Source: an uncultured Stenotrophomonas sp. (GTDB taxonomy: Bacteria; Pseudomonadota; Gammaproteobacteria; Xanthomonadales; Xanthomonadaceae). From it: a stretch of DNA of 56,513 nucleotides. The notes beneath the pieces were generated by a model. The model was not told the origin of the DNA, made no database searches, and saw only the letters and a program-made list of their open reading frames with translations. A program made the position numbers and the translations under genes. Shown here in pieces: positions 1-9,474 of this stretch. How positions within the stretch are numbered: position 1 is the first letter of the stretch; every line of letters starts with the position of its first letter. The DNA lies in contig CAJYNG010000007.1 of NCBI GenBank assembly GCA_913775725.1, positions 1 to 56,513 on the forward strand, written 5' to 3'.

Positions 1-2
1 CC

Positions 3-323
3 ACGGTCGCCACCGCTGGCCTGCGCTTCGACAAGGGCCTGAAGGCATCGTTCCAGCAGGACAGCTGGTTGCACCTGCGTGGCGGTGTCGGCTACCGCCG
101 TGCCTCGGGTGATCGCAGCCAGGTGGCCAACCTGGCCTTCGCCAACAGCAGCACCACCTTCGCGGTCGAAGGCGCCCCCATCGCCGACAACGCGGTGGTG
201 GCCGAGCTGGGCCTGTCGGCATGGCTGACCCCGCGGCAGCAGCTGGAGCTGGGCTACAGCGGCCAATTCGGTAGTGAAAGCCGAAGCCATGCTGCCAACC
301 TGCGGTGGTCAGTTCGCTTCTGA
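3..323 (+). CDS. C-terminal end of an autotransporter beta-barrel (5' truncated by window edge)
   Basis: The reading frame is open from the window edge and ends at the TGA at 321-323, leaving 106 residues of a longer protein. Alternating polar/hydrophobic strands (LHLRGGVGYRR, QLELGYSGQFG) and a final RWSVRF ending in aromatic Phe are typical of the last strands of an outer-membrane autotransporter barrel, where the terminal Phe is read by the BAM machinery. Short periplasmic-turn motifs and residues such as TPRQQLELGYSG fit the type V secretion translocator domain. The passenger domain lies outside the window, so the function (protease, esterase or adhesin) cannot be read. A hairpin about 20 bases after the stop may end the transcript. 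Confidence 0.7.
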   Translation, partial: TVATAGLRFDKGLKASFQQDSWLHLRGGVGYRRASGDRSQVANLAFANSSTTFAVEGAPIADNAVVAELGLSAWLTPRQQLELGYSGQFGSESRSHAANLRWSVRF

Positions 324-341
324 CGAAAGCACTGTCCTTTT

Positions 342-368
342 GCAGAGGTGCCTGATGGTCACCTCTGC
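342..368 (+). terminator. Possible terminator hairpin after the autotransporter gene
   Basis: Perfect 9-bp arms GCAGAGGTG and CACCTCTGC surround a 9-nt loop, starting 18 bases after the stop codon. There is no clean run of T after the stem, so intrinsic termination is likely but not certain. Confidence 0.45.
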
Positions 369-1170
369 GCCCTTCTAATTCCCACACTTTTCTCAATGTC
401 ATCCGGAGAAAAATAGTTGGTGTTACTCTTGCTCTGATTAATCCAATTCCTCTGACTCGCCCTGTAAGACTGGCATTGCGCTCACGTGAGTCCTTTCATT
501 TACACGGCAGCCTCAGCTTCTGCCGAACAGGTGCAGGTTGTAGTTTTCACCAACGATCCGAAAAACAATGCTATTACAGGCAGCAGGGAGCAAACTGTCT
601 GATAGTCCTGCTGCTGGCACGGAATAAGAGGGCGTGCGAATGCCGGCAAGATTGCTGGCCAGCCAGCCCCATGGGAATATATGCATGAAATGCCCGCGTC
701 GGCGTCGTGGCTAAAGATGAGCCGCAGCGCTTGGCTGCGGCCAGTGTGAAGCTGGATAGGAGGCCAACGCAGGCCCGAACATGCGCTACAGCCGCAAGTT
801 ACGCTAGCCAAAAATGATAGATTCAACTACCAGCACATCCTGTTCAAGGGCCATGGCAAGTTGGATCTCAAGAAGGACTGGTTCGGTGATTTCGCTGGGT
901 CAGTGGTGTGTGATCATTCTGTATCTGGCAAGCCCAAACGAAAGCGAACCTCAAACAGATTGCCGACCATAGATAGGGCGGCACCTATCCTCCACTGATC
1001 TACGCCGCAGGGACCAGCCAGAGGCGTCGTCGACTGTTACCGTATTCGGTGGGCGCTCGAAAATACGAACCCTTCCAAAAGTAGTACATCGTCACCGATC
1101 AATAGGTGGTCCGCTGTGAACTGTCTGCATTGGGTCCGATTTTAAAAATGGAAGAGACGGAGCCAAGTGT
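369..1170. other. Long stretch without a convincing gene
   Basis: Both strands carry only short overlapping reading frames with no recognisable protein features. Composition is more AT-rich than the core genes further right. A stretch near 830-1000 can be read on the plus strand as a fragment (NYQHILFKGHGKLDLKKDWFG is part of it) without a proper start, and may be a remnant of a decayed gene. I cannot assign it. Confidence 0.4.
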
Positions 1171-1171
1171 C

Positions 1172-1198
1172 TGGACCAGGTAGTGGCTACCTGGTCCA
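1172..1198 (-). terminator. Hairpin downstream of the protease/partner operon
   Basis: Perfect 12-bp arms (TGGACCAGGTAG and its complement) with a 3-nt loop lie 18 bases beyond the minus-strand stop codon at 1216. An A-rich tract on the plus strand near 1143-1150 gives U residues only further downstream, so it is an imperfect terminator candidate for the two-gene operon. Confidence 0.5.
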
Positions 1199-1215
1199 AA
1201 CAACTCATCAGGCGA

Positions 1216-1767
1216 TTACAGAAGTTCTTCCTTGCCCTGAATCAACTCAGGTTCTGCGGCCCTAATGCCTGCCTGCGACAGCAGGCGCTCCGGTGCGTCG
1301 AGCGCCGCATTGACTGATGCATATTCCACGATTGCTCTACGCGCGGCGCGGGATATGCTCACCAACCTACCCCCTGTCGCCCGTGCGGCAGCTTCAACTG
1401 GAGCACCGTCAGTAAAGAACAACTTAACGCGTGATGTAACAACTACTGGTGCACCGTCATCGGATATTGCAGCTGACAGCTTGTCTTTACCAGCTCCGGC
1501 AACAGGTGGTGCGTCTACGGCGGAACGCTTGACGCGGGTGGAACTACTTGCTGGCTGGCCAAAGTCGGCCCGGTCCTCTACGGCGGTGGGCGTCGCCAGG
1601 CGGAACCTGGTCCCATGTATCTCGAACGAACGACCGCTAGTCTCCGTGGACAACGCGTTGGCGTCGAGGGTCGTAAGAAGCTTGACGGGATCGGTAGCAT
1701 CCTGCGCTTGCGAAGGTGTGGTGATGGCTGCGGATGCAAGGATACTCATCAGAAGGATGGTCTTCAT
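1216..1767 (-). CDS. Secreted partner of the adjacent subtilisin-like protease, propeptide/chaperone-like
   Basis: A 183-residue protein with a clear signal peptide (MKTILLMSILASAAITTPSQAQ, cleavage after AQA near residue 22). A low-complexity middle part is followed by a C-terminal 70 residues patterned like an I9-type subtilisin propeptide: VKLFF..GAPVEAAARATGGRL, IVEYASV, and a closing AAEPEL where propeptides usually have VEPD. The start codon lies one base after the protease stop codon, so translation is almost certainly coupled. Known parallel: Aeromonas sobria serine protease ASP, also kexin-like with a P-domain and lacking its own propeptide, needs the gene just downstream (ORF2) as an external chaperone. 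I infer the same role here: folding aid and temporary inhibitor in the periplasm. The similarity is by pattern and gene order, not by alignment. A longer in-frame start exists upstream at 1884 but it would overlap the protease and lose the signal peptide. Confidence 0.7.
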   Translation of the reverse strand: MKTILLMSILASAAITTPSQAQDATDPVKLLTTLDANALSTETSGRSFEIHGTRFRLATPTAVEDRADFGQPASSSTRVKRSAVDAPPVAGAGKDKLSAAISDDGAPVVVTSRVKLFFTDGAPVEAAARATGGRLVSISRAARRAIVEYASVNAALDAPERLLSQAGIRAAEPELIQGKEELL

Positions 1768-1768
1768 G

Positions 1769-3571
1769 TCAGTGCCCCAAGATGCGAAGTGTGAACGACT
1801 CAAGCTTCCCGCGAGATGCGGCACCGGCAGGGCGTCCCATGTCGGTGGCCTCCAGCGTCCAGGTGCCCTTGCCATTTTCGTCAAGGAAAGCGTTACTCGA
1901 AAGAAGCTGCCAAGCAGAGAAGCTGGCCTGCTTGTTCCAGAATCCCGAGCCTATGGCAGTGTAGGCAGGTTGCACGACGCTGCGGGTGCCGCTGGGCGAG
2001 ATAAGGACGAATTCCACCAGGCGGCTGTTGACGTGATCCAAAGAGAATCCGAGTTGCACGGCCTCAATTTTGCGCGCGCCATCAGGCATCTCGATCTTCA
2101 GTCGGGTCGTGCGCGGCACTGAACTAATGCTCACTTGACGCCTGACGGTATGCCACCCAGTGTCGACCAGAGCACCTAGCGGCTGGAAGGTGGAGGCCAA
2201 ATGGACGGCTCGTGCCGCATCCACCACGCCAAAGCCGTACCAGTTGCTGAAGGCGTGACCGGCGGCATTGGTGATCCACCCCGGAACAAGTTCTCGCCCA
2301 TCGCTGAGTCGGGTCGAGACTTGCTGTGGGTCCGTCTTCCTCGCTGTAACTGCCAGCACGTACTTGACATCACGGAAACTGAGCTGTGGGTTCGCTTCCA
2401 GAATAAGAGCCGCGACACCAGAAACCATGGGTGCTGCAGCAGAAGTTCCGTTCATTTTGGCTGTGTAATCACACGAACGATCAATCAGCGATAGGTTGCT
2501 GTCCAGATCATCTTCGCGATTCTTGTTGATATTGGTGCCGTCTTCGCATCCGGCTATATCGGTAGTGATGATCGCCGGGTCATAAGAGTTTGGGGCTAGG
2601 CCGGGCTCATACTTTTTCTGTATTCCACCTTCGCCACCGAAGCCCGATACCCAGAGTGCTGAGCCGGTAGAGGAATAAGATGAACGTCTACCATCAGCCG
2701 CGACAGCCCCCACTGTGATTGTGTTGAAATAGTTGTTCCGTGGGTCATGTCCTGCTGGGAGGCAGCCGACGTTAAGCTGCTTGGTCTGGTAGCTGCACGA
2801 ATCCAATACTCCAAATGCTGTTTTCCGCGTCGCAGCATTAGTAAAGTTGTTCCCGGCGGCCTTGACGTAAATGCCCCCGCGTCCCGAACGAGTGCTGGAC
2901 ATTGCGCGTTCGTACGATAACTGATCGTTGGTACTGCTTCCAACCGGTAAGTTCGGGCTGACGGAGCTAAGCCCCCAGCTGTTGTTGAAGACGTCAATAT
3001 CGGCCGATTCCTGACCATCCCACCACGCATAGCTGAGATTTTCTTCGGAGGCATAAAGTGTAATTGAGCCACTTTTAGTGGGCTTGCTCTCAAGCCAGTT
3101 GAAGCCCTTCAGCGTGGCTGAGGGCGCGACCCCCCTCACACCTATCCCGTTCCCGCCGACCGCGGCAGCAATGCCTCCTACCATGGTGCCGTGAGCGTTG
3201 AGCGTGGGATTGAGGGGTGTGGGGTCGTTTCGGTTACGCGCGTTGGGATTGAAGTTCCGCCCAGCAATTCTACCGACGTGCGCCCGTAGATCGGGATGCG
3301 CAATCTGCAGGCCATTGTCGATGATGCCGATAGTTACGCCTTCGCCCCGGATGTTGTTGCGGTAGAGGCCGTCGACATTGAGATCATTGCCCGAGACGAG
3401 TGGCGTATCTGCAATAGCACGCTGTCCCGTGTTTTTAAGGTGCCACTGGTACACGGCGAGGGGATCACCAGCATCTTGGGCATTCGCTACGGAGATGGAT
3501 GTCGAGAGAATCAACGCGGTTGCAATGGCTAGCCGATTCAGTCGCCGTAGGGGCGCATGCGTGTAGGTCAT
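1769..3571 (-). CDS. Secreted S8 serine protease, subtilisin/kexin-like with C-terminal P-domain
   Basis: The 600-residue protein has a signal peptide (about residues 1-31, ending VANAQ) and then almost at once the mature kexin-like start DPLAVYQWHLKNTGQ, with no room for an I9 propeptide. The catalytic triad is visible: Asp85 in IGIIDNG, His127 in NAHGTMVGG, Ser377 in NGTSAAAPM, with the oxyanion Asn near 241 in KAAGNNF. From about residue 470 the sequence turns into a beta-rich P/homoB domain (IEAVQLGFSLDHVNSRLVEF, LISPSGT, GTWTLEATD). Cysteines (259, 270, 342, 367) suggest disulfides. Known of the family: extracellular endopeptidases cutting proteins, often toxic to hosts. The next gene begins one base after the stop and probably encodes the missing chaperone/propeptide. 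Upstream AAGGAAA on the minus strand can serve as ribosome site. Confidence 0.9.
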   Translation of the reverse strand: MTYTHAPLRRLNRLAIATALILSTSISVANAQDAGDPLAVYQWHLKNTGQRAIADTPLVSGNDLNVDGLYRNNIRGEGVTIGIIDNGLQIAHPDLRAHVGRIAGRNFNPNARNRNDPTPLNPTLNAHGTMVGGIAAAVGGNGIGVRGVAPSATLKGFNWLESKPTKSGSITLYASEENLSYAWWDGQESADIDVFNNSWGLSSVSPNLPVGSSTNDQLSYERAMSSTRSGRGGIYVKAAGNNFTNAATRKTAFGVLDSCSYQTKQLNVGCLPAGHDPRNNYFNTITVGAVAADGRRSSYSSTGSALWVSGFGGEGGIQKKYEPGLAPNSYDPAIITTDIAGCEDGTNINKNREDDLDSNLSLIDRSCDYTAKMNGTSAAAPMVSGVAALILEANPQLSFRDVKYVLAVTARKTDPQQVSTRLSDGRELVPGWITNAAGHAFSNWYGFGVVDAARAVHLASTFQPLGALVDTGWHTVRRQVSISSVPRTTRLKIEMPDGARKIEAVQLGFSLDHVNSRLVEFVLISPSGTRSVVQPAYTAIGSGFWNKQASFSAWQLLSSNAFLDENGKGTWTLEATDMGRPAGAASRGKLESFTLRILGH

Positions 3572-3851
3572 AATGTAAATTTCCTTCCTGTAGTATGGGT
3601 GCTTGGAAATCGTTCAATGACTTGCGTGGAGATCCTTCTGCATCGTGCGGGCGTGCGCTCCGCGCCCCCTGTGTGGAAACAAGCCCTCCGTTCTCGTGTG
3701 TAAGATGTTTGTGATGTGCTTGGGTGCCGGAGTTGTTCTGAGCTCTGGAGCGGAATCGCCTTGAGCGAAGCCACGTCTGCGGTGGCTCAAATTGGGCCGT
3801 GAGGCGCCATATCTCCAGCGGAGGTCTGCGCCAAGATTTACGCCCTAACGC

Positions 3852-4652
3852 CTAGAAGTGAGTACCGCCATCGATCCTAAGTTCGGTGCCTGTGATGAAG
3901 CGGCCGTCGTCACTCGCCAGCATTGCAACAACACCAGCTACGGTCTCCGGTTTTGCAAATCCCTCGATTAATGCAGGTTGCAGCTTGGCGAACAAGCTCA
4001 TGTCCGCGTCTTCGGGCAGGCCTGCGCCCTTGTTCTGCCCGCTGTGGCCAGAGCCAACAGTCATCCCTGAAGAGATGGAGCCGGGTTGGACGCAAGTGAA
4101 GCGGATTCCATCCTGGGAGTACTCGGAGGCAAGTGCGTGAGTCATCGACTGGATTCCGCCCTTGCTTGCTGCATAAGCAGCCATGTACGGGTGAGCAAAG
4201 GTTGCGGAGGTCGAACTGAAATTCACTACCGCGGCGCTCTTGCTGAGGCGCAAGGCAGGAACAGATTCTCGAATGAGCAGGAACGTCCCGACGAGATTGA
4301 CACGAATTACTCGCTCGAACTCTTCAACGCTCGTTTTGTGAGTGTGCGATGAGCGCAGAATGCCGGCCGCACAAACCAGGACATCCAGCCCTCCAAGTTC
4401 ATCGACTGCGGTTCTTACGCCATTGCAGACTGAATCCTCATCAGAGACGTCCATAATCAGCGTGTGTAGACGGTCCTTGTCAGTCCCAGCTTTTGCCGCT
4501 GTGTCCTCCAGTCCCTCGCTACTAACATCAGCTGCCACGAGCAGAGCTCCTTCCGACAACATTCGAATTGCCGTTGATTGACCAATGCCGGATCCGGCAC
4601 CAGTGATCAATACGCGGCGTCCTTCATACCGCTTCAAAATATCTGTGGTCAT
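3852..4652 (-). CDS. Short-chain dehydrogenase/reductase (classical SDR)
   Basis: A 266-residue classical SDR. The NAD(P)-binding motif TGAGSGIG is at residues 17-24, the structural motif is CAAG near 94-97 in place of NNAG, catalytic Ser is near 146 (NFSS), Tyr160 and Lys164 form YAASK, and the C-terminus has the usual GTELRIDGG. An Asp in VAADVS at about 42 suggests preference for NAD(H). The reaction is oxidation of a secondary alcohol to a ketone or the reverse. It is divergent from a 3-ketosteroid-dehydrogenase-like flavoenzyme, with about 400 bp between, so a hydroxysteroid or similar polycyclic alcohol is a reasonable guess for the substrate. The exact substrate cannot be read from sequence. 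Confidence 0.85.
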   Translation of the reverse strand: MTTDILKRYEGRRVLITGAGSGIGQSTAIRMLSEGALLVAADVSSEGLEDTAAKAGTDKDRLHTLIMDVSDEDSVCNGVRTAVDELGGLDVLVCAAGILRSSHTHKTSVEEFERVIRVNLVGTFLLIRESVPALRLSKSAAVVNFSSTSATFAHPYMAAYAASKGGIQSMTHALASEYSQDGIRFTCVQPGSISSGMTVGSGHSGQNKGAGLPEDADMSLFAKLQPALIEGFAKPETVAGVVAMLASDDGRFITGTELRIDGGTHF

Positions 4653-5049
4653 ACCGTCTGCTCCTGAGTTGAAGGGTTTTGCGTGGGTTGTGCCTATCCG
4701 GTTCCTGTTGGTCGCTCGGAACGCTGAGGTTGTAGCTAGTCAGTGGTTGGTGGGGTTCCGGGAATACAAGCAATCGCCGCTAAACCGCTGCCGCGTGAAG
4801 CGGCCAGCTGGCGGATCTCTCTTTTAATCACTGGAGGTAGGGGGCTTTGTGTCTGTGAAGACTCCTAGCGGCGCGAATGTTGACTTGGCAGAGCCATATC
4901 GGTGCCCTGCCTCTACCCGGTTAATAGCATTTGAACATACATGCAGTATTGTTACGATACAGTGTGTCTAGTGAGTGACACAATGGGCTGCGCCTGCGCT
5001 TGGCCTGCGCAGGTGCGATTCGTGGCAGACCGCGAAGGAGTAGAGGGTG
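4653..5049. other. Divergent intergenic control region between SDR and flavoprotein genes
   Basis: No gene is visible in these 397 bases. The right half holds a sigma70-like promoter and two operator-like palindromes pointing to the flavoprotein gene (listed separately). The left half should contain the SDR promoter, which I cannot place. Confidence 0.5.
4931..4982 (+). promoter_or_regulatory. Predicted promoter with two operator-like palindromes
   Basis: TTGAAC (4931-4936), a 16-base spacer and TACGAT (4953-4958) resemble -35 and -10 boxes. The interrupted palindrome GTAT-TGTTACG-ATAC (4946-4960) overlaps the -10 box. A second inverted repeat, TGTGTC-8-GACACA (4963-4982), covers the likely start point of transcription. 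This is the usual geometry for repression, for example by a TetR-family protein. No regulator gene lies next to it in this window. Confidence 0.5.
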
Positions 5050-6759
5050 ATGAACCGAGAAGTAAGACAGGATCTTTCCGTCGACGTAGTGGTAGTGGGA
5101 TCGGGTACCGGCATGGCAGCTGCACTGGCAGCAAGTGAGGCCGGGCTGTCAGTGATAGTTGTTGAGAAGACGGAGTTGTTCGGGGGATCGACCGCACGCT
5201 CGGGCGGTGCGATCTGGATTCCTGGCAATCCGGCGCTGCGAAGGCAGGGCGGCGCCATTCCGCGCGCTCAAACTGATCGTTACTTGGAGTCAGTGGTAAG
5301 CGGCAGCGCGCCATCGGAGCGCTACGGCGCATTCCTCGACCACGGCCCGGCTGCCGTCGCCATGCTCGAGCGCACAACTGCGCTGAAATTCCGCTGGATG
5401 AGGGGTTATCCGGATTACTTCCCCAATGAGCCTGGGGGCAATGGAGCTGGCAGTTCGTGCGAGGCTGAGCCATTCGACATCAACCGATTGGGCGACCAAA
5501 AGTGCTGCCTGCGGCCCTCCGATGTTGAATCCCCCCTTCCGATGCCTGTGACTGGTGCAGATTACAAATGGTTGAACCTGATCATGCGTACGCCCGCCAA
5601 GAGCATATCGATCGCAGCCAAGCGCCTGCTCCAGGGCGTTTGGGGGGCAATGGCGGGGCGAAAGCTCGTCACCGGCGGACAAGCCATTGCAGCCGGGATG
5701 CTGGACGGCCTTCTGAGGGCAGGAGTGCCGTGCCTAAATGGCACGCGAGTAGTGGATCTGATCCACAATCAAGGGCGCGTTACAGGTGTTATCGCAGAAC
5801 GGGACGGGGCACAATTCCGTATTAATGCCACCTGCGGCGTGGTACTTGCTGCAGGCGGGTTCGATCACAACATGGACATGCGAGCGCAGTACCAATCGGC
5901 TTCCCTGGTAGATGATGTCAGCTTGGGAGCACGCGGCAACGTGGGTGAGGGCATCCTCATGGGCAAAAGAGCAGGAGTTGGCCTGGCGTCCATGGATCAG
6001 GCTTGGTGGTACCCCACAGTGAAGCCAGTTAAAGGCTATCCTCCCATTGTACTGGCTGACAGATCCCTACCGGGCTCTTTCATGATCAATAGCCGCGGTC
6101 GACGATTTGTCAATGAGGCCGAAAGCTACATGGCATTCGGACAGCGGGTACTAGAGCTTGAGCAGCGCGGACAACCCGTCGGGCAGATGTGGATGGTGTT
6201 CGATCAGCAGTACCGGAATAGCTACCTTATGGCCGCGTCCATTCCCCCTCGAAAGAAGCTGCCCTCCGACTGGTATCAGGCAGGAATCGTCGTTGAGGCA
6301 GACACCCCCGCCGATCTTGCAGCCGCTATGCATGTTCCGCAGCAGGTATTTTTTAGCGAGTTCTGTCACTACAACGAGATGGCTACCTCAGGCGTGGACA
6401 GCGATTTTTCGAGAGGCGATAGCGCTTACGATCGGTACTACGGTGACCCGACCATTGCCCCCAATCCGAACCTAAGGCCGCTTGCGGGCAAGTTGTTTGC
6501 TGTCCAGTTTGTGCTGTCCGATCTAGGAACCTGTGGTGGATTGACTGCTGACGCCAATGCGGTTGCCATGCGCAACGATGGAACCCCAATGGATGGTCTT
6601 TACGTGATCGGCAACAATGCAGCCAATGCGTTTGGAGCCGCTTATCCCGGCGCGGGTGCCACGATTGGTCAGGGCATTACATTTGGGTACATAGCCGTTC
6701 AACATATGCTCAGCTCCTCTTCCTCTAAGGCTGCTATTGCATCCGGTGCGCTCGAGTAG
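5050..6759 (+). CDS. FAD-dependent oxidoreductase, 3-ketosteroid-delta1-dehydrogenase-like
   Basis: A 569-residue FAD_binding_2 flavoprotein. The dinucleotide motif VVVGSGTGMAAAL is near residues 14-26, with GGSTARSGGAIWIPGN directly after; the C-terminus has GLYVIGNNAANAF and AYPGAGATIGQGITFGYIA. This ending matches the delta1-KstD group, in which the Tyr of YPG and a nearby Gly polarise the steroid C3 keto group. The expected reaction is 1,2-desaturation of a 3-ketosteroid-like substrate. Fumarate-reductase-type relatives share the fold, so the substrate remains inferred. AAGGAG at 5035-5040 is 9 bases before the ATG at 5050; a GTG three bases upstream is possible but worse placed. The divergent SDR could supply the keto substrate. 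Confidence 0.8.
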   Translation: MNREVRQDLSVDVVVVGSGTGMAAALAASEAGLSVIVVEKTELFGGSTARSGGAIWIPGNPALRRQGGAIPRAQTDRYLESVVSGSAPSERYGAFLDHGPAAVAMLERTTALKFRWMRGYPDYFPNEPGGNGAGSSCEAEPFDINRLGDQKCCLRPSDVESPLPMPVTGADYKWLNLIMRTPAKSISIAAKRLLQGVWGAMAGRKLVTGGQAIAAGMLDGLLRAGVPCLNGTRVVDLIHNQGRVTGVIAERDGAQFRINATCGVVLAAGGFDHNMDMRAQYQSASLVDDVSLGARGNVGEGILMGKRAGVGLASMDQAWWYPTVKPVKGYPPIVLADRSLPGSFMINSRGRRFVNEAESYMAFGQRVLELEQRGQPVGQMWMVFDQQYRNSYLMAASIPPRKKLPSDWYQAGIVVEADTPADLAAAMHVPQQVFFSEFCHYNEMATSGVDSDFSRGDSAYDRYYGDPTIAPNPNLRPLAGKLFAVQFVLSDLGTCGGLTADANAVAMRNDGTPMDGLYVIGNNAANAFGAAYPGAGATIGQGITFGYIAVQHMLSSSSSKAAIASGALE

Positions 6760-7616
6760 TTGCGGATCCGGCTGGCGATGCGTCGAGCCTGGCCCGTATC
6801 CACCTTCGCGGTGATCCAGATGGTCGCATTCATTGAGGACTCAAGCCAACAGTTACGTTCTGGCGGCTTGAGCGGTTACAGAGATATTCAATCGGCAGCT
6901 TCTTGTCGGAGAGATCGTGGGACCTTTAGATCTCCACTTGCTTCTATCAAGCAGAACCTTGTCTACAGGCTCAAGCTGGTAGGGGTGGGAATTGCAGCCG
7001 CTGAGGTTTGCCGCAAGGTAGGCGCCGCTGGGCAACGTGTTGTTTGACACGAGAAGTGAGACGGGCTGGGCGCATGCCTGTTCAAGCGGCTGCGATTGCT
7101 GGAGAAGGAAACATGACCTACAAGTTGGTGGTCCGCATGAGCCTGAACAAGGCGATTGTGCAGGCGGGCCTTGCAAAGAACTCTGAGGCCTGATCACAAG
7201 CGCGCCTAATGGATCGGCTAAGGCGCATGGGAGCAACGCTATCCGCCGCTGGATGCCCTGAGTTGCTCAGAAATCGATTCGCTACCGCTGTACGAGTATT
7301 GGTGATGCCGCATCGAAGGAGGTGCTGGTGGCATCAAAAGCGCGTATGGCATCTCCAAGCACGACCAAATCGTCCATAGACGTCCACCGTTATGCACGGC
7401 TCTCGGGGGTATATTTGGGGGTGCCTTGGGCATTCCGAAAATGTAAATTATTTTAAATTCAATGCCATAAGGATTATTTGTGGTTCGGATAAGCGCACCA
7501 TCTCACGCAGGCGCACCCGAGCGCTGTGCTTTCAGGACGCGGCTCGCGCACTGCCGACCCAGAGGGCTGCCAGATGTGGCCCGCACCGGGCTTGACCACA
7601 CCAAGGAGCAAGCTGG
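6760..7616. other. Long gene-free stretch
   Basis: Over 850 bases with only short, overlapping frames of odd composition and no recognisable motif. The segment near 7437-7490 is strongly AT-rich and may carry the promoter of the lipoprotein gene at 7617. The pattern suits decayed or spacer DNA in an accessory region. I see no intact gene. Confidence 0.4.
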
Positions 7617-8048
7617 ATGAGCAGGCTTCCCGTAGTCATCCTCCTGTGCGTCGCAACGACAGCCTGTGCAGGCCCGATCCGATGGGCTGAACCACAGGAT
7701 TTCAGTTTCTCCGTGGTGGACAACCCGAGGGAGAAGCGATACGACATCGCCCTCGCCTCTTCTGCCATCGCGCCGTTATGCCTCCTGAAGGAGAACTGGC
7801 CTGCTGAAGACGGCACATTTCCGACGGGGTACGAAGGCGCGGTCTTGACCATGACCATGGGTCTTCTGCAGCCCAAAGCTGTCATGACCGCGTACTGCCC
7901 GGGAGGATGTGGCGAGGTTCGCCTGGAGCCAGGCCAGATCCTGCGGTCAAGGATTGCCTATGCAGCATTTGGTGATGCAGAGATCGTCGCAGTTGATCCT
8001 GTCCGCTCGATATCGTTCACCGTTCATCCCTTCTATTGCAGACGGTAG
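7617..8048 (+). CDS. Small putative lipoprotein of unknown function
   Basis: 143 residues. The N-terminus MSRLPVVILLCVATTACAG is a short signal peptide with Cys17 in a lipobox-like position (TTAC), so lipid anchoring is likely but the box is not canonical. The rest is a compact, probably beta-rich domain with Cys residues at about 55, 96, 100 and 140 (YCPGGCGE among them), suggesting disulfides in the periplasm. AAGGAG about 9 bases before the ATG supports this start. I do not recognise the family. It stands alone, preceded by an AT-rich stretch and followed by 160 bases of non-coding DNA. Confidence 0.65.
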   Translation: MSRLPVVILLCVATTACAGPIRWAEPQDFSFSVVDNPREKRYDIALASSAIAPLCLLKENWPAEDGTFPTGYEGAVLTMTMGLLQPKAVMTAYCPGGCGEVRLEPGQILRSRIAYAAFGDAEIVAVDPVRSISFTVHPFYCRR

Positions 8049-8210
8049 TCCATGCCCCACCAGGCATTCCGATCATCGTTGATGGACGCTCTGAGATGTC
8101 TGCTTCTGCGCAGTTTTCAGGCCTGGTTAGGTAAGCAGAACCCTATGGGATCTACGCTCGAATAGAAGTGCGACGCTCCGTATGCAGCGTGTGGTCCTGT
8201 CGGTCGGAAC

Positions 8211-8918
8211 CTACTCCCAGTGATCAGGTTTTAGAATAGGTTTCTTCCCTGTTTGAACCCGGGCAGGCAGCAGCGCGCGCTGCAACTCAACGTCCAGTAG
8301 ATGCGCGCGGGTCCAGTCAGCTTGAGCATCGAGTGAGGTACTCACTGCTCGCCCCGCAGCTCTGCCGCTGACTGGTGGGTGCCGAGGCGTGACCACGCCC
8401 AATCGGACGTGAGGAAAGTCTTCCCTGATGGCTCTGAGCACAGGCTCAACATCACTGTCATTTGAGCAGATGACCATCTGCGCATAACGTCCTGAAGCAG
8501 CATCTCTGTACATCGCCAGCGCGATGTTCACGTCGGTCTGTTTCTCTTCGATTTTCCACACACGGGTACGTCTGCTGCGATCGTAGGCCGTGCCTGGATC
8601 GAAGACAGGGAGAAGGACGCCCTTCCTGTCCATGCTGTGCTTGCCGAGCGTCTTCAGGAATCGCCGTGGATGGAGGTGCTCATGCGCACGCAGGTAATTC
8701 TCCTGAGCGATTACCGATGCGCCGCCATGGGTAGCAAAGCGCCCAAGTGCCATGGCCGTGAAGTAGTGCAGGTGCTGAAGATCGCTGGCAGGATCCTGAT
8801 CCTTGAGGACAATCTCGAAGAGGCGCAAGAGATCGATCCACTTGAAAGAAGTGTTTCGGATGCGCCCGTAGTAGAGATTGTAGCCATCGACGTAAACAGC
8901 GGTCGCAATAGGCATCAT
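8211..8918 (-). CDS. NYN/PIN-like domain protein, probable ribonuclease
   Basis: 235 residues with the NYN signature: AVYVDGYNLYYG at residues 7-18 (first acidic residue Asp11), KQTDVNIALAM in the middle and MVICSNDSDVEPVLRAIRE (second acidic cluster), followed by VRLGVVTPRHP. NYN domains share the PIN/FLAP nuclease fold and coordinate a metal through conserved Asp residues to cut RNA. The protein is a lone-domain cytosolic form, as often found in accessory DNA. Two ATGs occur in a row at 8918 and 8915; AGGA lies about 7 bases upstream of the first. A strong bidirectional terminator lies just upstream, so the promoter must be squeezed into 17 bases or the gene is read from a promoter beyond the terminator; this is unusual. 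Confidence 0.8.
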   Translation of the reverse strand: MMPIATAVYVDGYNLYYGRIRNTSFKWIDLLRLFEIVLKDQDPASDLQHLHYFTAMALGRFATHGGASVIAQENYLRAHEHLHPRRFLKTLGKHSMDRKGVLLPVFDPGTAYDRSRRTRVWKIEEKQTDVNIALAMYRDAASGRYAQMVICSNDSDVEPVLRAIREDFPHVRLGVVTPRHPPVSGRAAGRAVSTSLDAQADWTRAHLLDVELQRALLPARVQTGKKPILKPDHWE

Positions 8919-8935
8919 TTGCGTCCTGCAAACGT

Positions 8936-8963
8936 GAAAAAACCGCCTTTCGGCGGTTTTTTC
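8936..8963. terminator. Bidirectional intrinsic terminator
   Basis: GC-rich stem CCGCC/GGCGG with a TTTC loop is flanked by A6 on the left and T6 on the right, giving U-tracts in both directions. It can end transcription arriving from either side. It sits immediately upstream of the NYN gene start. Confidence 0.85.
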
Positions 8964-9474
8964 GTCCCAAGCCGTTGAATCAACCTAATGACGCGGCAAG
9001 GGAGGAGTAGTGGAGTCATCATATGGCGAAAGTCGCATGTCGGCAACTGGGCCTTCACCGTCATTGATGCCTGTGGCTGTTGCAGCGATTTGATCTGCAC
9101 GCAACGAGCTTCCAATCATTGGAGCCGACCTGGGTAACGGATTCAATGAGGATTCTTGCGTTTCCTCGCGGCCTCCCCAAAACTGACCCGCATGCTCAGT
9201 GAAAACGACAGCAGCGGATGAGGAATGTTGCAACTTGATCTCAAGCGCCTGGTTTTCAGTTGATCTTTCGAACGCGGAAAACTAGCTTCGCAGCGTTGTT
9301 GGCAGACGCCAGTTCGTTATGCCACAACATCGAGACGCCGCATAGGAGCGGTCCTTCGGCGATGGGCCGGATGCAGGTTGAAGCAACCAAGAACGGTGCG
9401 AAATGGAAGCGATCATGGAAGAAGGCACGGTAGCGGCCATGGAATGGTTGATGGCTGAAACGATCTGCTGACCC
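8964..9474. other. Gap with only a doubtful minus-strand frame
   Basis: The clearest frame is at 8985-9233 on the minus strand (about 82 residues from a TTG), ending 22 bases before the terminator at 8936-8963. Upstream it stays open to about 9278 (FSAFERSTENQALEIKLQ) without a good start. It could be the 3' remnant of a lost gene, which would explain the orphan terminator. No function is visible. Confidence 0.35.

What the first reader, a model, noticed from the sequence alone, without database searches (positions are those of the whole stretch)
1216..3571. Kexin-like protease with its propeptide supplied as a separate secreted protein
The protease goes from signal peptide directly to the mature start DPLAVYQWHLKNTGQ and has a P-domain. 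Its own propeptide is missing. One base later starts a secreted 183-residue protein whose C-terminal part is patterned like an I9 propeptide (GAPVEAAARATGGRL...AAEPEL). The known parallel is ASP and ORF2 of Aeromonas sobria, where the downstream protein is a chaperone and inhibitor. If correct, this is an ASP/ORF2-type pair in Stenotrophomonas, and the partner could be a new chaperone family.
Basis: partly seen in the sequence, partly recalled or inferred. Interest (0 to 1): 0.8.

Follow-up and report, generated by a model that had tools for sequence, protein, structure and literature searches.

The report
Protease with separately encoded folding partner
A secreted bacterial protease appears to have its folding-helper segment encoded as a separate neighbouring gene, as in one well-studied Aeromonas enzyme, and its relatives carry that helper as a gene downstream, a gene upstream, or fused in front.

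Summary
A kexin-like protease (window 1769-3571, minus) lacks a propeptide, and one base after its stop lies a gene for a small, apparently secreted 183-residue protein. The protease's best PDB sequence match is ASP of Aeromonas sobria. The partner's predicted fold ranks ORF2 of the ASP-ORF2 complex first among 350,542 PDB chains, with subtilisin and furin propeptides close behind, though E-values are weak. In 91 genomes of the genus both genes occur in the same 38 and neither in the other 53. Of 96 near-complete proteases at 74 named loci, 88 have a partner domain: 82 downstream (one frameshifted, one cut by a contig end), 3 upstream, 3 fused N-terminally. It is a divergent branch of the ORF2 family, not a new chaperone family: the window partner has no Pfam hit, but 10 of the 45 aligned members do hit ORF_2_N. 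It lacks ASP's Arg566 segment and ORF2's Gln-Pro-Lys tail. What goes beyond the published pair is the cis/trans exchange, with two genomes holding both forms. Chaperone function is inferred by homology, not tested.

The parts
1769..3571 (-). ASP-like subtilase, 600 aa, no propeptide
   Evidence: ORF; Pfam S8 + P_proprotein, no prodomain; best PDB sequence match ASP 3hjr/3wqb, about 1e-81
3479..3571 (-). signal-peptide-like N-terminus (residues 1-31), followed about 5 residues later by DPLAVYQWHLKNTGQ
   Evidence: by eye on the translation; no predictor run
2228..3346 (-). S8 catalytic domain (residues 76-448); triad D85, H127, S377
   Evidence: they align with ASP D78, H115, S336 (triad named in PMC5638518); D-H-S in 81 of 81 aligned proteases
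1784..2068 (-). P domain (residues 502-596), without the roughly 20-residue insertion that carries Arg566 in ASP
   Evidence: tail lengths; ASP segment printed
1768..1768 (-). single base between protease stop (TGA) and partner ATG, suggesting translational coupling
   Evidence: spacing of -1, +1 or +2 in 62 of 84 downstream partners at the named loci
1216..1767 (-). partner gene, 183 aa, divergent ORF2-type external propeptide/chaperone
1705..1767 (-). partner signal-peptide-like N-terminus (residues 1-21)
   Evidence: by eye
1597..1689 (-). partner N-terminal region (residues 27-57): two short helices and a beta-hairpin
   Evidence: AF2, block pLDDT 63 to 90; covered by the profile match to ORF2-type partners
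1237..1479 (-). propeptide-like domain (residues 97-177), beta-beta-alpha-beta-beta-alpha-beta
   Evidence: AF2, pLDDT above 90 for most of it; Foldseek rank 1 = ORF2
1219..1236 (-). C-terminal tail (residues 178-183, GKEELL), expected to lie in the substrate cleft
   Evidence: position after the last strand; analogy with the ORF2 tail, PMC5638518 passages; not modelled

Best explanation
This is an ASP/ORF2-type operon: a subtilase with a P domain whose propeptide function is supplied in trans by the next gene. Both proteins are exported with signal peptides. In the periplasm the partner's propeptide-like domain docks on the catalytic domain, helps it fold, and lays its C-terminal tail in the active-site cleft, so that it also inhibits the enzyme until the partner is removed or degraded after secretion. 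Shown here: gene anatomy, homology of both genes to ASP and ORF2, predicted fold of the partner, co-occurrence, shared history of the two genes. Inferred from the published ASP/ORF2 work: folding assistance, inhibition, tail in the cleft, order of events.
For: Protease closest to ASP among solved chains. No prodomain in cis. Partner fold: rank 1 of PDB = 3wqb_B, probability 1.00, 87 columns, TM 0.63 by target; pro-subtilisin, Tk-propeptide and furin/PC1 prodomain at ranks 3-6, fervidolysin at 16. Of the 45 members of A3, 10 hit Pfam ORF_2_N (best 2.3e-10) and 11 Fervidolysin_NPro-like (best 2.6e-8) at E up to 1. An ORF2-type profile finds ORF2 in the PDB at 1.4e-8 and matches A3 with score 54.3 against a shuffled maximum of 18.4. 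In two Pseudoalteromonas genomes absent from A3, the only hit at E up to 10 is the gene after the ASP homologue (E 0.011 and 0.55). The same 38 of 91 genomes of the genus hold both genes. In 16 genome groups with several pairs (37 pairs), partner and protease distances correlate at 0.960; 0 of 2000 within-genome swaps reach it. Relatives carry the partner-type domain N-terminally, where a classical propeptide sits.
Against: The window partner alone has no Pfam hit at E up to 10. The Xanthomonadaceae-only profile A2 matches the ORF2-type profile weakly (22.0, shuffled maximum 15.5) and misses ORF2 in the PDB, as does a single Pseudoalteromonas partner; the link rests on intermediates and on fold. 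Foldseek E-values are weak and nearly tied (rank 1 0.039; rank 2, the unrelated NONO, 0.042 with probability 0.41). The tail ends ELL, not Gln-Pro-Lys, and the Arg566 segment reported to contact ORF2 in ASP is missing. Some relatives have no detected partner. Correlated distances can come from duplication of the pair as a unit. No complex was modelled.
Confidence: 0.9

Rival explanations
1. The partner is only an inhibitor (immunity-type protein) that protects the periplasm; the protease folds without help.
For: Propeptide-like proteins are inhibitors too (general knowledge; ORF2 inhibits ASP, PMC5638518 passages). A solitary partner gene without an ASP-like protease exists in one genome of the same family (G134, L050, genus not named). 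5 of 96 near-complete proteases have no detected partner.
Against: For the homologous ASP the partner is reported to be needed to become the mature form (PMC5638518, passages); the domain takes the place of a classical N-terminal propeptide in L132, L133, L137.
Confidence: 0.06
2. The partner is an unrelated secreted protein that merely shares the transcript.
For: No Pfam hit and only a chance NCBIfam hit for the window sequence.
Against: Fold, profile and co-occurrence evidence.
Confidence: 0.02
3. The window copy is a recently acquired, perhaps unexpressed extra copy; it is a genuine pair but has no role in this strain. (Compatible with the best explanation.)
For: Low third-position GC (0.63 and 0.57) against 0.73-0.86 in the two other pairs of the genome; in the 91 genomes no other copy is closer than 65% (protease) or 57% (partner).
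Against: Both reading frames and the catalytic triad are intact.
Confidence: 0.3

Closest known systems
ASP and ORF2 of Aeromonas sobria (PDB 3hjr, 3wqb, 2mk4; Pfam PF18492 ORF_2_N)
   Same: Propeptide-less S8 protease with P domain; partner with apparent signal peptide encoded just downstream; propeptide-like domain after an N-terminal region; C-terminal tail after the last strand
   Different: Window partner not detected by PF18492; tail GKEELL instead of one ending Gln-Pro-Lys; protease lacks the roughly 20-residue Arg566 segment; three pairs in one genome
Intramolecular propeptides of subtilisins, fervidolysin (PF22148) and furin/PC1 prodomains
   Same: Core fold; 11 of 45 aligned members match PF22148
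   Different: Encoded as a separate gene in most members found here, with its own apparent signal peptide
Kexin/furin proprotein convertases
   Same: S8 catalytic domain plus P domain
   Different: They carry their own prodomain in cis (general knowledge); E-value about 54 orders of magnitude weaker than to ASP

Membership tests
ASP-type propeptide-less subtilase | S8 catalytic domain with D-H-S triad plus P domain | tested here: met
ASP-type propeptide-less subtilase | no N-terminal prodomain in cis | tested here: met
   35 residues before the mature-like start; no prodomain hit
ASP-type propeptide-less subtilase | ASP is the nearest solved relative by sequence | tested here: met
ASP-type propeptide-less subtilase | extra occluding segment with Arg566 | tested here: not met
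   23 residues after the WTLEATD motif in the window protease against 42 in ASP and 41 in Pseudoalteromonas; short (19-24) in 77 of 81, long in 2, 2 unscored by the motif but short by eye
ASP-type propeptide-less subtilase | activity depends on the partner | not testable with these tools
   needs expression with and without the partner
ORF2 (PF18492) | Pfam ORF_2_N score above cut-off | tested here: not met
   window partner: no hit; 10 of 45 aligned members hit at E up to 1; of 20 relatives scanned one by one, 6 exceed the cut-off (L119, L122, L131, L134, L155, L159)
ORF2 (PF18492) | profile and fold similarity to ORF2 | tested here: met
   hhalign A3 against A4; Foldseek rank 1, weak E-value
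ORF2 (PF18492) | gene directly downstream of the protease | tested here: met
ORF2 (PF18492) | C-terminal Gln-Pro-Lys tail in the active site | tested here: not met
   tail GKEELL; penultimate Pro in 29 of 47 distinct tails of the 81 pairs; placement in the cleft could not be modelled
Inhibitor_I9 (Pfam) | sequence match to I9 | tested here: not met
   no I9 hit listed for the window partner (E up to 10) or for any of the 45 members of A3 (E up to 1) or 13 of A2 (E up to 10)
Inhibitor_I9 (Pfam) | propeptide-like fold | tested here: met

The most novel reading that the evidence does not exclude
The subtilase propeptide is an exchangeable module: within one protease family the same domain occurs as a separate gene downstream, as a separate gene upstream, and as an N-terminal fusion, and two genomes (those of L132 and L137) hold both trans and fused forms. 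The three pairs in the window's genome, with different partner tails (ELL, ETK, EQI), may be orthogonal chaperone-enzyme pairs whose tails encode partner choice.
Probability: 0.5. Interest if true: 0.7.

Novelty: new variant of a known kind. Interest (0 to 1): 0.5.

Why it matters
A propeptide acting in trans was described for ASP/ORF2 and, by the authors' own search, asp-orf2 operons were found in five genera (PMC5638518, passages). Here the arrangement reaches Stenotrophomonas, Xanthomonas, Lysobacter, Pseudomonas luteola, Pigmentiphaga and several delta-proteobacterial and Bdellovibrio-like genomes, and relatives show the same domain in cis. That gives natural comparisons for an old question: what must a propeptide do that only covalent linkage, or only separation, allows? 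Tandem and paralogous pairs offer ready tests of pairing specificity.

Tried and rejected
Led nowhere or weak: phmmer of the window partner (one chance hit), of a Pseudoalteromonas partner (none) and the Xanthomonadaceae-only profile (chance RRM hits) against the PDB. Foldseek of the fused domain of L133 was not specific: heavy-metal-binding, RRM and other folds outrank the first subtilisin propeptide (rank 24, probability 0.69), so the cis/trans claim rests on sequence. A link between the last tail residue and S1-pocket residues: no clear pattern on reading the columns (no statistical test). A one-chain model of protease plus partner: the mixed alignment put all 28 partner rows in the wrong region, so it was not submitted. 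VIA-align was not available.

Considered and rejected: a brand-new chaperone family; an orphan partner in G701 (a protease remnant lies before it); partner loss in G092, G140 and G175 (partner present but divergent).

Cautions on counts. The iterated HMM was built on and searched only ORFs near proteases, so its E-values are for a small set; one search gives the off-target control. Two further HMM matches (L094, L095) are to the N-terminus of the following protease and are counted as no partner; so of the 86 adjacent matches, 84 are partners (80 beside near-complete, 4 beside incomplete proteases). The status of 11 proteases was assigned by hand. 'Near-complete' means matching the window protease from residue 60 or earlier to 570 or later; 5 shorter ones are left out of the 96. 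The whole-genome search with A3 missed the upstream partner of L128 and the fused domain of L133, so a blank there is weak evidence of absence. L137's fused domain has no HMM or prodomain hit of its own; it is assigned by similarity to L133 and L132.

Full report
What is there. On the minus strand, 1769-3571 encodes a 600-residue protein with an S8 domain (9.3e-42) and a P domain (3.1e-11) and no prodomain. Thirty-five residues precede DPLAVYQWHLKNTGQ. One base after its stop, 1767-1216 encodes 183 residues with a signal-peptide-like start (signal peptides judged by eye).

What the protease is. Among all PDB chains the best sequence matches are ASP of Aeromonas sobria (3hjr, 3wqb; about 1e-81), far ahead of furin (about 1e-27) and kexin (about 1e-25). 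The alignment is collinear from the mature-like start into the P domain and pairs D85, H127 and S377 with the ASP triad. One ASP feature is missing: about 20 residues near the end of the P domain, which in ASP carry Arg566. The stretch is short in 77 of 81 proteases, long only in the 2 Pseudoalteromonas among them, and unscored in 2; the Vibrio protein L159 and the unnamed L151 and L152 also have it, by eye.

What the partner is. Alone it has no Pfam hit and only a chance NCBIfam hit. With 44 relatives (A3, 45 sequences) AlphaFold2 gives a confident domain at residues 97-177 and a plausible N-terminal hairpin. Foldseek ranks ORF2 in the ASP-ORF2 complex (3wqb_B, probability 1.00) first of 350,542 PDB chains. 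Pro-subtilisin, Tk-subtilisin propeptide and furin/PC1 prodomain follow at ranks 3-6. The E-values are weak and nearly tied (0.039 for rank 1; 0.042 for rank 2, the RNA-binding protein NONO, probability 0.41), and RRM-like folds are scattered below, so the weight lies on the ranking and the probabilities. Of the 45 members of A3, 10 hit Pfam ORF_2_N (best 2.3e-10) and 11 Fervidolysin_NPro-like (best 2.6e-8) at E up to 1. A profile of partners from Vibrio, two Pseudoalteromonas and two unnamed relatives (A4) finds ORF2 in the PDB at 1.4e-8 and matches A3 with score 54.3; 60 column-shuffled copies reach at most 18.4. The Xanthomonadaceae-only profile A2 scores 22.0 against a shuffled maximum of 15.5, so the intermediates matter. 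Searching two whole Pseudoalteromonas genomes with A3, which holds no Pseudoalteromonas sequence, gives as only hit at E up to 10 the gene directly after the ASP homologue (E 0.011 and 0.55, positions compared with L138 and L150).

How regular the pairing is. In the 91 genomes of the genus that were searched, the partner (E up to 1e-6) and the protease (E up to 1e-60) each occur in 38, the same 38 (compared, Fisher p 1.7e-26, not corrected for ancestry). The window's genome has three of each; the other two pairs are split by contig ends. In one genome (G748) the partner is broken, and in another (G683) the protease is truncated. A family sample of 198 genomes gave 12 with the partner (E up to 0.001) and 15 with the protease (E up to 1e-40). 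Of the mismatches, G092, G140 and G175 do have a divergent partner; G014 shows none on its 4.5-kb contig; G134 has a partner but no protease match.

Named loci. A scan of named genomes returned 74 distinct loci (the best 80 of 143 confirmed relatives were kept). They hold 96 near-complete proteases: 80 with an open downstream partner, 1 with it frameshifted, 1 with it cut by the contig end, 3 with the partner upstream (L122, L128, L139), 3 with the domain fused N-terminally (L132, L133, L137), 2 followed by another protease, 5 with none found (second copies in L090 and L104, Variovorax L115 and L116, Bordetella L121), and 1 undecided at a contig end. Control: among 2934 ORFs of 100 or more codons in those loci, the partner HMM hits 86 adjacent ORFs (84 partners, 2 protease N-termini) and 5 others, which are the 3 upstream partners and 2 of the 3 fused domains.

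Farther out. In the family of Pseudoalteromonas 9 of 98 genomes have the protease (E up to 1e-60), and 9 of 9 have a partner-like gene next to it by eye. In a class sample 11 of 369 genomes have the protease at E up to 1e-30; of its 12 more distant loci (L055-L066; L063 and L065 are one gene), 4 show a partner by the HMM and 8 do not, of which 7 are followed by a second kind of small protein.

Cis and trans. The upstream partner of L128 and the N-terminal domains of L133, L132 and L137 are the same protein domain (blastp 8e-27, 2e-22, 2e-12 in a four-sequence set). The genomes holding L132 and L137 each also have a trans pair with the partner upstream (L185, L184). The link of this group to the partner family is by HMM: L128 8.7e-6, L132 0.0037, L133 0.029, L137 none, plus weak Fervidolysin_NPro-like matches for L132 and L133 (0.031, 0.026). 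The AF2 model of the L133 domain is confident (pLDDT 86) and has the same order of strands and helices in its core, but Foldseek does not single out propeptides for it.

Shared history. For 81 pairs the protease and partner distances correlate at 0.968; in 16 genome groups with several pairs (37 pairs) r is 0.960 and 0 of 2000 within-genome swaps reach it (mean 0.675, maximum 0.947). This shows co-inheritance; physical contact is not shown.

How it most likely works. By homology with ASP/ORF2 (PMC5638518: passages seen; the 2015 structure paper was not held): both proteins are exported, the partner assists folding, and its C-terminal tail blocks the cleft until it is removed. In ORF2 the last residues Gln-Pro-Lys lie near the catalytic residue. 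In the 81 pairs here a penultimate Pro is found in 29 of 47 distinct tails (Pro is 4.6% of all partner residues), the last residue varies (R, L, M, N, W, Q, K, T, Y among 31 non-redundant pairs), and the window's own tail is GKEELL. No tool here could test folding, inhibition or the complex.

Literature. Searches of the held library found the ASP papers; in the listings I saw no account of this pair in Stenotrophomonas or Xanthomonas. I saw listings, and passages of PMC5638518, PMC12285256, PMC7250499 and PMC2605481. PMC5638518 reports asp-orf2 operons in Vibrio, Shewanella, Chromobacterium and Pseudoalteromonas besides Aeromonas. Most subscription papers are not held, so absence there is not established.

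Verdict. A real, well-supported ASP/ORF2-type pair. By homology it works like ASP/ORF2, but the partner lies outside the Pfam cut-off of the family and the pair lacks two ASP/ORF2 details, hence new variant of a known kind. The most interesting part is the wider family, in which the helper domain moves between trans and cis.

Noticed in passing
window 1-9000: Third-position GC of the ORFs here (about 0.57-0.66) is well below that of several genes further on (0.81-0.91), and the pair's own GC3 is below that of the two other pairs in the genome (0.73-0.86); this end of the contig may be an acquired region.
   Followed up: partly
L050 5619-6314 minus (G134): A solitary partner gene: no ASP-like protease in the 12-kb locus and none in the genome at E up to 1e-40. 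Unexplained: a lost protease, or an inhibitor of another enzyme.
   Followed up: partly
L094 7993-9804, L095 10254-12065 (Xanthomonas arboricola): The third protease of the array begins with a stretch matching the partner's signal peptide and first residues, joined straight to the protease mature start, as if a deletion fused the start of one partner to the next protease.
   Followed up: partly
L057, L058, L059, L060, L061, L064, L066: More distant P-domain proteases of the same class are followed by a second kind of small protein of about 200 aa (WYDGDEKRSVWVNPE..., ending in R). Its profile A6 matches A3 with score 41.1 against a shuffled maximum of 17.3, but A2 only with 14.1 and A4 with 23.1 (no shuffles run for those two).
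   Followed up: partly
L115, L116 (Variovorax), L121 (Bordetella sp.): ASP-like proteases without a prodomain and without a significant partner match in the genome (best E up to 10: none, none, 0.99). The same search also missed two real partners elsewhere, so an unrecognised helper remains possible.
   Followed up: partly
L041-L044, L047, L048 and L090-L111 (Xanthomonas): Tandem arrays of two or three protease-partner pairs, several with one decayed or incomplete copy (L092, L099, L111); a large gene that looks like a TonB-dependent receptor lies upstream in L041-L044, L047, L048 (by eye).
   Followed up: no
window 69-323: An open frame ending ...LRWSVRF near the contig start looks like the end of an autotransporter barrel (by eye).
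   Followed up: no
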